Translations under genes and position numbers: made by a program | DNA from: Erysipelotrichaceae bacterium NK3D112 | GTDB taxonomy: Bacteria > Bacillota_I > Bacilli_A > Erysipelotrichales > Erysipelotrichaceae | Reading direction: 5' to 3' | DNA: 51,825 nucleotides | Assembly (NCBI GenBank): GCA_000701725.1 | Contig: JNJQ01000019.1 | Span: forward strand, 1 to 51,825 | The notes under the pieces: generated by a model | Told to the model about the DNA's origin: nothing | The model's input: only the letters and a program-made list of their open reading frames with translations | Databases searched by the model: none | In this document: one piece after another, positions 1 through 47,258 of the stretch | Position numbering within the stretch: position 1 is the stretch's first letter | How the letters are laid out: each line of letters begins with the position of its first letter

Positions 1-154
1 CCTCTGTTGATACAGATCTGTGTTTGGCATCGTACCACTCGTGGACAGTGGCACTGATCAGCTTCCTTGAGACGGAGTTCTCCTCTGTTTTATCCCAGGG
101 AAGATACTTCAAAGAGCTTCCCCAAGAGGAAGCGTCGTCCACATATTTACACAT
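1..154 (-). CDS. IS1595-family transposase, N-terminal 51 residues (runs off window)
   Basis: The frame opens with ATG at 154 and stays open to base 1. It is closed upstream by an in-frame TAA, so this ATG is the only normal start. The product begins MCKYVDDASSW and contains LPWDK and HEWYDAKHRS. These line up with TPWDH and HKGYDSHHKS in the N-terminus of the complete transposase at 46048..47079. The zinc ribbon and DDE catalytic domain would lie outside the window. No good Shine-Dalgarno lies next to the ATG; a GAAAG sits 16 bases upstream inside a predicted stem. The opposite strand is also open here, but has no homolog that I recognise. Confidence 0.55.
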   Translation of the reverse strand, partial: MCKYVDDASSWGSSLKYLPWDKTEENSVSRKLISATVHEWYDAKHRSVSTE

Positions 155-159
155 AGTTT

Positions 160-226
160 GGCGGTCGGATCTTTCAGGAATGAATTAACGGACCGCCAAG
201 CCCTAGCATTAATTCATTCCTGAAAG
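160..226 (-). promoter_or_regulatory. Interleaved inverted repeats (predicted mRNA pseudoknot) before transposase start
   Basis: Two inverted repeats interlock. One pairs 171..188 with 209..226, a perfect 18 bp. The other pairs 160..166 with 191..197 (GGCGGTC with GACCGCC, 7 bp). Read on the minus-strand mRNA the order is stem1, stem2, stem1', stem2', then five bases and the ATG: an H-type pseudoknot layout. The complete IS at 46-47 kb has the same layout with unrelated sequence. The inferred role is to limit transposase translation. Confidence 0.55.
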
Positions 227-258
227 GTTCCTAGGTGTTCCCTTTCCAGAACGAATTT

Positions 259-264
259 ATTATA
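259..264 (-). promoter_or_regulatory. -10 element for the partial transposase
   Basis: The minus strand reads GGTATAATA, a consensus -10 hexamer, about 30 bases upstream of the pseudoknot. The complete IS has the same GGTATAAT in the corresponding place (47191..47196). I see no convincing -35. Confidence 0.45.
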
Positions 265-45823: not shown

Positions 45824-46002
45824 ACTGTTCATTCCTTTATTTCGTTATAGTCTTTTACGGTATGTGAATATACCGGATGACGGGATTTGAACATGCAGGA
45901 ATTTCCTCAAGGGATATAGAAAACACTCAGAGAGGCATCAGTCACATGGTTCTGAGTGTCCATGGGATTAATCTTAATGAATGTATGCGCTTTAAACGGA
46001 TT

Positions 46003-46010
46003 TTTAATAA
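46003..46010. repeat. Target-site duplication, left copy
   Basis: TTTAATAA immediately outside the left inverted repeat; identical to 47251..47258. An 8-bp duplication is typical of IS1595-family insertion. Confidence 0.8.
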
Positions 46011-46034
46011 AAATCCGCTTTTGCAGAAGTGTGA
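46011..46034 (+). repeat. Left terminal inverted repeat of the IS
   Basis: 24 bp, perfect inverted copy of 47227..47250. It lies just beyond the transposase stop. Confidence 0.85.
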
Positions 46035-46047
46035 TGAATCAAGGGTG

Positions 46048-47079
46048 TTAATCATCTGATCTGTCATTCTTCCGCTTGTAAAATGCTCTATATCTTAATT
46101 GGGCTTTGTGCTTTATTGCCATCTCAAGAAACAGTTCTGCTTTCTTGAGTTTATTGGCAGGCGGATTCATGATGAAGACAAACAGATCAAGATATCCCTG
46201 AATATTTTCTCTCAGAAATCCTGAATGTGAATCAAGGAACAGTTTTAACAACGCATGAACGTTATTGATTCTTTCCAAAGGATTTTCTTCATCTTCCAGA
46301 CCTTTCAATTCTTCAGAAGTATAAACTGTTTCCTTAAGCCCTAAGCTCGAAACAAGAATGGAATGAGAATTCTCATCATCATGTATCAGATGGGATCTCT
46401 TCCTGATGTGGCCAATGAATGTCTTCTTTGTTCTTTCCGAATCGGGCTTGCCGTTTCCTTCGTATTTACAGTAGATATGCTTATCATCTGCAGCGACACC
46501 GATGCACATCTTATTTCTTGAGATTCCTCTCAGAAGTTTTCCATCCTTCCTTACCGCGTCTGCTTTTCTGACAGAATAGAATGTCTCATCCAGATATACA
46601 TCCCCTTTGAGAACAGTATCAGTCTGACAGTCTTTAAGGACCAGGAACACCTTCTGAAGCCAGTACCTCGATGTAGTAAATGCATTGCGGTTGTTCTTTG
46701 AATCTGAAGTCAGGCTTACAAAGTCAAACAGATTCAAAAGGTACTGCAGCCATTCTCCTATAGAGATCTTATGATCTTCAAATATCGTACCGGTTGTTAT
46801 ACAGAACGATTGCCTGCACTCTTTACAGGTATAACGCTGCAGACCGGATTTGTAATATCCGTTTCTGACAAATGAATCTGATCCGCGATAAGGACAGCTT
46901 TCCGGTTTATAGCTGTCAAACAGATTCGAATCTTTCATCTCTTCAAGGCTTTTATGATGGGAATCATAGCCTTTGTGATAAAGCTCGCGGAGATATTCCT
47001 GCATTGGAGATATCTCGGCATCGTTTAAATGGTCCCACGGAGTTCTACTGCGGGACTGAGATCTTATTCTTGTTTTCAT
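46048..47079 (-). CDS. IS1595-family transposase
   Basis: 343 residues from ATG 47079 (MKTRIRSQ...). A longer open frame to 47145 runs through the structured leader and is probably not used, since the sister element has a stop there. An N-terminal zinc ribbon is partly degenerate: CPYRGSDSF has lost one Cys, while YTCKECRQSF keeps its pair. The ISXO2-type DDE domain follows: D in VYLDETFYS, D in IHDDENSHS, and the family block HALLKLFLDSHSGFLREN. The Shine-Dalgarno AAGGA lies within a predicted stem 10 bases upstream. An intact frame and intact ends suggest it may be active. Confidence 0.85.
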   Translation of the reverse strand: MKTRIRSQSRSRTPWDHLNDAEISPMQEYLRELYHKGYDSHHKSLEEMKDSNLFDSYKPESCPYRGSDSFVRNGYYKSGLQRYTCKECRQSFCITTGTIFEDHKISIGEWLQYLLNLFDFVSLTSDSKNNRNAFTTSRYWLQKVFLVLKDCQTDTVLKGDVYLDETFYSVRKADAVRKDGKLLRGISRNKMCIGVAADDKHIYCKYEGNGKPDSERTKKTFIGHIRKRSHLIHDDENSHSILVSSLGLKETVYTSEELKGLEDEENPLERINNVHALLKLFLDSHSGFLRENIQGYLDLFVFIMNPPANKLKKAELFLEMAIKHKAQLRYRAFYKRKNDRSDD

Positions 47080-47082
47080 GGA

Positions 47083-47157
47083 GTGGTAGTCCTTCCAGCC
47101 AAGCCGGATAGTTGTACGAAGGACTACCACATCACTAATGCACAACTACCCGGCTTG
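47083..47157 (-). promoter_or_regulatory. Predicted pseudoknot sequestering the transposase ribosome binding site
   Basis: Two inverted repeats interlock: 47083..47095 with 47118..47130 (13 bp perfect) and 47100..47115 with 47142..47157 (16 bp, one G-U). On the mRNA the order is stem1, stem2, stem1', stem2', and stem2' contains GAAGGA, the transposase Shine-Dalgarno, three bases before the ATG. Folding would hide the ribosome binding site. Confidence 0.65.
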
Positions 47158-47190
47158 ACTCATTAGCTTGATCTCTTTCAGATCATTAGT

Positions 47191-47196
47191 ATTATA
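47191..47196 (-). promoter_or_regulatory. -10 element of the IS transposase promoter
   Basis: The minus strand has TGGTATAAT, an extended -10, inside the right end of the IS and about 35 bases upstream of the pseudoknot. The partial IS at the left edge has the same GGTATAAT at the matching position. There is no clear -35. Confidence 0.55.
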
Positions 47197-47226
47197 CCAT
47201 CCATCAAGTTCTAAGATCTCGAGTCG

Positions 47227-47250
47227 TCACACTTCTGCAAAAGCGGATTT
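47227..47250 (-). repeat. Right terminal inverted repeat of the IS
   Basis: 24 bp, perfect inverted copy of 46011..46034. Confidence 0.85.
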
Positions 47251-47258
47251 TTTAATAA
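47251..47258. repeat. Target-site duplication, right copy
   Basis: TTTAATAA, identical to 46003..46010. Confidence 0.8.

What the first reader, a model, noticed from the sequence alone, without database searches (positions are those of the whole stretch)
47083..47157. RBS-hiding pseudoknot in the leader of an IS1595-family transposase
Two long inverted repeats (13 bp and 16 bp) interlock in pseudoknot order, and the last strand contains the transposase Shine-Dalgarno GAAGGA. This should block translation. Other IS use simple leader hairpins against readthrough transcripts; here the IS promoter transcribes the same fold, so escape would need co-transcriptional kinetics or a factor.
Basis: partly seen in the sequence, partly recalled or inferred. 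Interest (0 to 1): 0.7.

Follow-up and report, generated by a model that had tools for sequence, protein, structure and literature searches.

The report
Interlocked RNA switch in transposase leader
The messenger RNA of a small jumping gene starts with a conserved, undescribed folded element whose interlocking helices end right at the start codon of the transposase, so it probably limits how often the jumping gene makes its enzyme.

Summary
Two inverted repeats (13 bp; 19 nt, extending to 21 bp as RNA) lie in the order A-B-A'-B' and end 3 nt before the transposase AUG. The same arrangement occurs in about 50 distinct leaders of related IS1595-like elements, across several Bacilli families, with quite different sequences. 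Both helices covary strongly on a structure-blind alignment (21/21 and 12/13 pairs with double changes; 0/500 shuffles). G-U exceeds A-C, pointing to the sense RNA. Groups II and IV add a third helix, P:P', starting at the predicted transcription start. Named IS1595 elements (ISSag10, ISCco2, ISCaje6) lack the element and Rfam has no match.

The reading 'pseudoknot hides the RBS' is only partly supported. Full A:A' (20-24 bp) and full B:B' cannot coexist, because only 0-4 nt link A' to B'. Since both are conserved along their whole length, the leader probably switches between A:A' (initiation region free; the default in nested folding) and a B:B'-containing state (initiation region hidden). 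In almost half of group I, B' has no Shine-Dalgarno yet still pairs; those leaders carry a conserved GAAAGG in the 5' hairpin instead. Translation control is inferred, not shown.

The parts
46011..47250 (-). IS1595-like insertion sequence carrying the element (1240 bp; IR AAATCCGCTTTTGCAGAAGTGTGA; 8-bp target repeat TTTAATAA at 46003-46010 and 47251-47258)
   Evidence: read from sequence; the two ends match each other 91% over 35 bp
46048..47079 (-). transposase ORF (343 aa), ATG at 47079-47077
   Evidence: NCBIfam transpos_IS1595 E 5.8e-18 but 65.5 bits, below its cut-off of 75; IS1/IS1595 zinc-binding domain above cut-off
47191..47199 (-). predicted extended -10 promoter element TGGTATAAT; +1 predicted at G47184
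   Evidence: sequence; in most relatives a G follows the -10 hexamer after 6 nt, at or near the first base of the first hairpin strand
47170..47184 (-). P0, 5'-terminal hairpin GATCTGAAAGAGATC starting at predicted +1
   Evidence: predicted fold, pairing probability near 1 until coding sequence is included; an analogous 5' hairpin stands there in other group I leaders
47161..47166 (-). P strand CTAATG
   Evidence: pairs with P' in a co-transcriptional intermediate; class-wide signal in group I z about 4.9; strong helix in groups II and IV
47140..47160 (-). A, 5' strand of long helix A:A'
47135..47140 (-). P' strand CATTAG
47118..47130 (-). B, 5' strand of helix B:B'
47097..47117 (-). A', 3' strand of long helix A:A'
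47083..47095 (-). B', 3' strand of helix B:B'; contains SD-like GGAAGGA(C), 9 nt from ATG
152..264 (-). second member (subtype Ib) in the same window: -10 TATAAT 264-259, GAAAGG in P0, A 226-207, B 199-191, A' 190-171, B' 166-158, ATG 154-152; its transposase runs off the contig end

Best explanation
The whole 5' UTR of this transposase mRNA, from the predicted +1 to the AUG, is one conserved RNA element, P0-P-A-P'-B-A'-B'-AUG. Shown: the pairings A:A' and B:B' are kept by compensatory change over a large clade of IS1595-like elements, and the sense RNA is the likely carrier. Inferred: it is a bistable translational limiter. B:B' puts the initiation region (SD and/or the bases just before AUG) in a helix and blocks 30S loading. 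The 20-24 bp A:A' hairpin leaves B' free and allows initiation. The full helices exclude each other by geometry, not by sharing bases, so the leader must rearrange: the outer half of A:A' has to open before B' can pair fully with B. During transcription A:A' forms before B' exists, so a new transcript should be briefly translatable, and later closing into the B:B'-containing pseudoknot (inner A:A' plus B:B') would shut it off. That would give small bursts of transposase per transcript. The sign and the timing of this last step are the least certain part.
For: Structure-blind MAFFT alignment of 30 leaders: A:A' 93.2% of cells paired, 21/21 pairs with double changes, covariation 0.94 vs 0.31 shuffled and at most 0.20 when slid; B:B' 87.5%, 12/13 pairs with double changes, 0.40 vs 0.19 and at most 0.13. 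B:B' also kept in groups II and IV (21.1 vs null 10.6, sd 0.6). Outer and inner halves of A:A' are about equally paired, 92% and 94% (my sums from the per-pair table), so the complete helix is selected as well as B:B'. Linkers: l2 mostly 0 and l3 0-4 nt in all 30, so the full helices exclude each other. G-U vs A-C inside the helices 61:16 and 14:0. SD lies in B' in most subtype Ia and group II members, and by eye in group IV. Folding growing lengths: P:P' forms first, then A:A' replaces it. Rough pseudoknot energies put inner A:A' plus B:B' on average about 5 kcal/mol below A:A' alone, close to balance given the uncertainty. In-frame stops interrupt most leaders at varying places, so the leader is not coding.
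Against: No measurement of translation, of the 5' end or of RNA structure. Nested-only folding gives B:B' 0%. About 13 subtype Ib leaders have B:B' but no SD near the AUG, so 'SD hiding' cannot be the general rule. Group III keeps P:P' and A:A' but has no clear B:B'. The pseudoknot energies rest on an assumed penalty and on loop limits taken from memory.
Confidence: 0.55

Rival explanations
1. Positive role: the fold helps initiation. In subtype Ib the ribosome first binds GAAAGG in the 5' hairpin (a standby or remote SD site) and the folded P:P'/B:B' hairpins bring the AUG close, as a folded spacer.
For: 13/13 Ib leaders lack an SD near AUG and all carry GAAAGG 14-20 nt before A; in Ia only L129 has that hexamer near the start, further upstream. 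P' lies a few nt before B and B' 2-6 nt before AUG. tisB mRNA needs a 5' pseudoknot and a remote standby site (PMC7708055).
Against: Ib is nearly one clade on the transposase tree, so the correlation may be a single event. GAAAGG is partly paired in P0. Effective spacing is long (about 9-15 nt plus helix widths, by hand). Ia and II have ordinary SDs inside B'.
Confidence: 0.15
2. RNase III processing: A:A' is a two-turn substrate; cutting it releases a small RNA carrying B and leaves a shortened mRNA starting in A', with B able to repress B' in trans.
For: A:A' is a steady 20-24 bp with free sequence in 28 of 30 group I leaders and 23-25 bp in group IV; a structured small RNA is cut from the IS200 tnpA transcript (PMC12594629, abstract).
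Against: No processing data. It does not explain the near-zero linkers or P:P'.
Confidence: 0.1
3. Autogenous control: the transposase (or a host protein) binds the folded leader and locks one state.
For: Islands of conserved sequence inside the helices (GCCAAA at +1 and TTTGGCGAC in groups II and IV; TTGGCGG/CCGCCAA in Ib) beyond what pairing needs. Precedents: rpsO pseudoknot and T4 gene 32 (general knowledge; papers located).
Against: No binding data; most stem sequence is free to vary.
Confidence: 0.12
4. Simple SD-sequestering leader against read-through transcripts, as in IS10 and IS50.
For: SD sits in B'; upstream transcripts would contain the fold.
Against: All strands lie downstream of the IS's own predicted +1, so own-promoter mRNA has the same fold. 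In the pseudoknot-free fold the SD is outside the long helix.
Confidence: 0.05
5. DNA-level function (operator or cruciform) rather than RNA.
For: Inverted repeats next to the promoter.
Against: G-U exceeds A-C in the helices; stem sequences drift freely while the transposase and the terminal IR stay recognisable; strands run exactly from +1 to AUG.
Confidence: 0.03

Closest known systems
ISPpu9 (IS110/IS492 family) tnp 5'-UTR
   Same: A structured transposase 5' UTR buries the RBS; weakening it raised expression 26-fold (PMC8450116)
   Different: A nested fold in one species' element, opened by antisense RNA Asr9; unrelated transposase; no interlocked helices reported in the passages read
IS10, IS50 and IS200 leader and antisense control
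   Same: Transposase made scarce at translation initiation (as cited within PMC8450116; details from general knowledge)
   Different: They rely on antisense RNA, Hfq or read-through-specific hairpins; here all strands are downstream of the own predicted promoter and no antisense promoter was seen
tisB mRNA 5' pseudoknot and standby site
   Same: 5'-end pseudoknot far upstream of a sequestered RBS decides translation (PMC7708055)
   Different: There the pseudoknot promotes ribosome standby after processing; sequence, gene and helix sizes differ
rpsO (S15) and T4 gene 32 leader pseudoknots
   Same: Leader pseudoknot in or near the initiation region with alternative folds (general knowledge; papers located)
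   Different: Short stems that coexist and bind their own protein; here helices of 20-24 and 9-14 bp that cannot coexist in full; ligand unknown
IS110 bridge RNA
   Same: Conserved structured RNA upstream of a transposase-type gene in an IS (PMC11208160, listing only)
   Different: Different enzyme class; here the strands pair with each other and end at the AUG. Target- or donor-pairing loops were not searched for

Membership tests
IS1595 family insertion sequence | IS1595-type transposase by NCBIfam NF033547 cut-off | tested here: not met
   65.5 bits against cut-off 75, E 5.8e-18: a divergent relative, hence 'IS1595-like'
IS1595 family insertion sequence | IS1/IS1595 N-terminal zinc-binding domain | tested here: met
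   NF050000 33.6 bits, cut-off 28
IS1595 family insertion sequence | 8-bp target duplication with terminal inverted repeats | tested here: met
   TTTAATAA on both sides; IR ends
H-type pseudoknot leader | two helices in A-B-A'-B' order, both kept by covariation | tested here: met
H-type pseudoknot leader | both helices can form fully at the same time | tested here: not met
   l3 0-4 nt against A:A' of mostly 20-24 bp; only inner A:A' plus B:B' fits the assumed loop limits
RBS-sequestering leader | SD inside the paired strand | tested here: inconclusive
   met in the window, most of subtype Ia, group II and (by eye) IV; not met in about 13 subtype Ib members
RBS-sequestering leader | sequestered in the predicted equilibrium fold | tested here: inconclusive
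   not by B:B' in nested folding; yes in a rough pseudoknot energy model
read-through-specific IS leader hairpin (IS10/IS50 type) | 5' strand lies upstream of the IS's own transcription start | tested here: not met
   P0, P and A all follow the predicted +1; the start itself is not mapped
antisense-RNA-controlled transposase | promoter for an RNA opposite the leader | tested here: not met
   the + strand sites found at 47168 and 47279 point out of the element (consensus scan only)
any Rfam family | match at gathering score | tested here: not met
   at gathering on eight loci with relatives; at E-value level on the window: only sub-threshold hits on the leader
protein- or ligand-bound riboregulator | a binder that shifts the fold | not testable with these tools
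   needs binding and reporter assays

The most novel reading that the evidence does not exclude
A topological RNA switch: two or three helices that share almost no bases are mutually exclusive purely because the linkers between them are zero to a few nucleotides. The mRNA starts at the first strand and the last strand ends at the AUG, so the leader times or rations transposase translation without protein, ligand or antisense RNA; in subtype Ib the same fold replaces the local Shine-Dalgarno with an upstream GAAAGG.
Probability: 0.25. Interest if true: 0.8.

Novelty: new variant of a known kind. Interest (0 to 1): 0.62.

Why it matters
Transposase scarcity keeps IS elements from harming their host, and few RNA solutions are known in detail. 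This one is conserved over a large clade in several Bacilli families, matches no Rfam family, and has an architecture (long helices, near-zero linkers, first strand at +1, last strand at AUG) that makes sharp single-mutant predictions. It also makes a general question testable: can pairing be regulated by geometry alone, with no competition for bases?

Tried and rejected
Rfam at E-value level on the window and at gathering score on eight relatives: nothing on the leader. Coding leader: in-frame stops fall inside most leaders at varying places. Antisense promoter: none facing the leader. Phage, viral and plasmid homologues: none in viral contigs, only distant relatives in the others; ISSag10, ISCco2 and ISCaje6 leaders have no such element. 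A first extraction window cut off group IV leaders and labelled them 'none'; a longer window recovered them. The tree therefore labels L141, L076, L078, L149, L142 and three near-duplicates (L060, L048, L124) wrongly as 'none'. Conserved uORF: short uORFs exist in some leaders but not in others (by eye). Signature pattern search in 296 genomes: matches with strong complementarity sit before an IS1595-type transposase, apart from one decayed relic (L168); the rest look like chance. Read-through decoy upstream of P: GTTTGG before P in a few group III members only (by eye), not general. RNase III and in-trans B ideas could not be tested.

Full report
What is in the window. The finding lies in the leader of an insertion sequence on the minus strand (46011-47250, inverted ends AAATCCGCTTTTGCAGAAGTGTGA, 8-bp repeat TTTAATAA outside both ends). 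It encodes a 343-aa transposase related to IS1595: 65.5 bits, under that model's cut-off of 75, with the IS1/IS1595 zinc-binding domain above cut-off. The genome holds one copy at this DNA similarity. The predicted promoter is an extended -10, TGGTATAAT, with +1 at G47184.

The observation. Both inverted repeats are present as stated. As RNA the long one is a 21-bp helix. The order on the mRNA is P0 hairpin, P, A, P', B, A', B', AUG. The crossing-stem score is 80 against a maximum of 48 in 2,880 dinucleotide shuffles of homologous leader regions. A scan of the whole window found one more real case, a second element of a sister subtype at window 152-264.

Relatives. I searched about 1,370 genomes for related transposases, fetched further regions, and examined the leaders of hits with an intact 5' part. 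About 50 distinct leaders carry the element. They fall into four groups, named here for convenience. Group I (30 leaders, the window's own) has a 5' hairpin P0, weak P:P', A:A' of 18-24 bp (20-24 in 28 of 30) and B:B' of 8-18 bp, mostly 9-14. Group II (11) starts with P = GCCAAA or GCCAGA at the predicted +1, has A:A' of about 19-24 bp and B:B' of about 5-10 bp, holding the SD in most. Group IV (4, including one plasmid of a Tenericutes isolate) has all three helices with A:A' of 23-25 bp. Group III (5) has P:P' and A:A' with longer loops and no clear B:B'. Only one fragmentary member of the group I and II clade (L120) lacks it. Leaders of more distant IS1595 elements, including ISSag10, ISCco2 and ISCaje6, lack it. 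On the transposase tree groups I and II fall together (91% SH-aLRT), and with group IV at 95%; group III lies elsewhere on the tree (some rows were labelled before the longer extraction and should be read).

Covariation. On a MAFFT alignment made without structure, all 21 A:A' pairs and 12 of 13 B:B' pairs show double changes. Cells paired are 93.2% and 87.5%. Covariation scores are 0.94 and 0.40 against shuffled means of 0.31 and 0.19, 0 of 500 shuffles reach them, and sliding the partner by 1-3 columns collapses the score. For groups II and IV the combined structure gives 0.55 against 0.25, and B:B' taken alone is far above its null. G-U pairs outnumber A-C mismatches 61:16 in A:A' and 14:0 in B:B'; with a detector that scores G-U and A-C alike, 53:24 and 10:5. 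This points to the sense RNA. In group I, P:P' is weak one by one but clear as a class (mean 11.3 against 9.25, sd of the mean 0.42).

Can both helices form? Between A' and B' there are 0-4 nt, and A:A' is mostly 20-24 bp, close to 60 angstroms of A-form helix (general knowledge). In pseudoknot order that linker would have to run the length of A:A', so the two full helices exclude each other although they share no bases. Both are nevertheless conserved along their whole length; outer and inner halves of A:A' are paired in 92% and 94% of cells (summed). I infer that both states are used. A compromise with about 12 inner A:A' pairs plus B:B' is allowed by the loop limits I assumed, and in a rough energy model it is on average 5 kcal/mol below the A:A' hairpin alone. 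That is within the error of the assumed penalty, so I call it near balance.

Which state is on? In nested folding the finished leader is A:A' 99% and B:B' 0%; forcing B:B' costs about 10 kcal/mol (-39.9 against -49.5). Folding growing lengths gives P:P' first, then A:A' from about nt 74 to 90, before B' has been made. So the new transcript should expose the initiation region, and B:B' must come later or under some influence. The equilibrium calculation at each length is not a kinetic simulation.

What B' hides. In the window, most of subtype Ia, group II and, by eye, group IV, the SD lies in B'. In 13 leaders of subtype Ib there is no SD near the AUG at all; B' is ACCGCCAA or similar, 2-6 nt before the AUG, and still pairs with TTGGCGG. 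These same 13 leaders carry GAAAGG in the 5' hairpin, 14-20 nt before A, which the Ia leaders do not (L129 has the hexamer further upstream). This may be a remote SD or standby site. It may also be a single evolutionary event, since Ib is nearly one clade.

The 5' end. In most leaders a G follows the -10 hexamer after exactly six bases and is at or near the first base of P0 (group I) or the first base of P (groups II to IV). If that is the start site, the mRNA begins with a base-paired strand, which would protect its 5' end and leave it free to thread. The start sites are predicted, not mapped.

Comparison. Structured leaders that limit transposase translation are known (ISPpu9, PMC8450116; IS10, IS50, IS200 cited there). 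Leader pseudoknots that control initiation are known (tisB, PMC7708055; rpsO and T4 gene 32). I found no description of this element in Rfam or in the held papers (most subscription journals are not held, and supplementary files could not be searched). What is new is the architecture and its conservation in this clade. I file it as a new variant of a known kind: a translation-limiting structured leader with pseudoknot order.

Verdict. The structure is as good as sequence evidence can make it (about 0.97). That it limits translation through B:B' is the most likely reading (0.55). Rivals are a positive or standby role, autogenous control, and RNase III processing.

Noticed in passing
window 1-264 (minus strand): A second leader element of the sister subtype Ib, followed by the first 51 codons of another IS1595-like transposase cut off by the contig end.
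   Followed up: yes
window 46014-46027 (-) and 47234-47247 (+): Both inverted ends read outward as intrinsic-terminator-like hairpins (TCTGCAAAAGCGGA + T-run), so transcripts leaving the IS could stop at its ends; no such site was reported for incoming transcripts.
   Followed up: no
subtype Ib leaders (L044, L046, L093-L098, L137, L047, L061, L127, L128): Transposase genes without any Shine-Dalgarno near the AUG but with a conserved GAAAGG in the 5'-terminal hairpin about 100 nt upstream.
   Followed up: partly
L168 (minus strand, about 1500): A decayed copy that keeps promoter, P, A, P', A' and start codon but whose transposase frame is cut off after about 11 codons.
   Followed up: yes
G352 contig C1 (loci L142, L153): One genome with 7 leader matches of two group IV sequence types besides 5 copies of a transposase whose fetched copy has a group III leader: a possible natural system for expression tests.
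   Followed up: no
window 45989-46018: After insertion, the left flank and the IS end together make the palindrome CGGATTTTTAATAAAAATCCG (central base aside), which may be chance or target preference.
   Followed up: no
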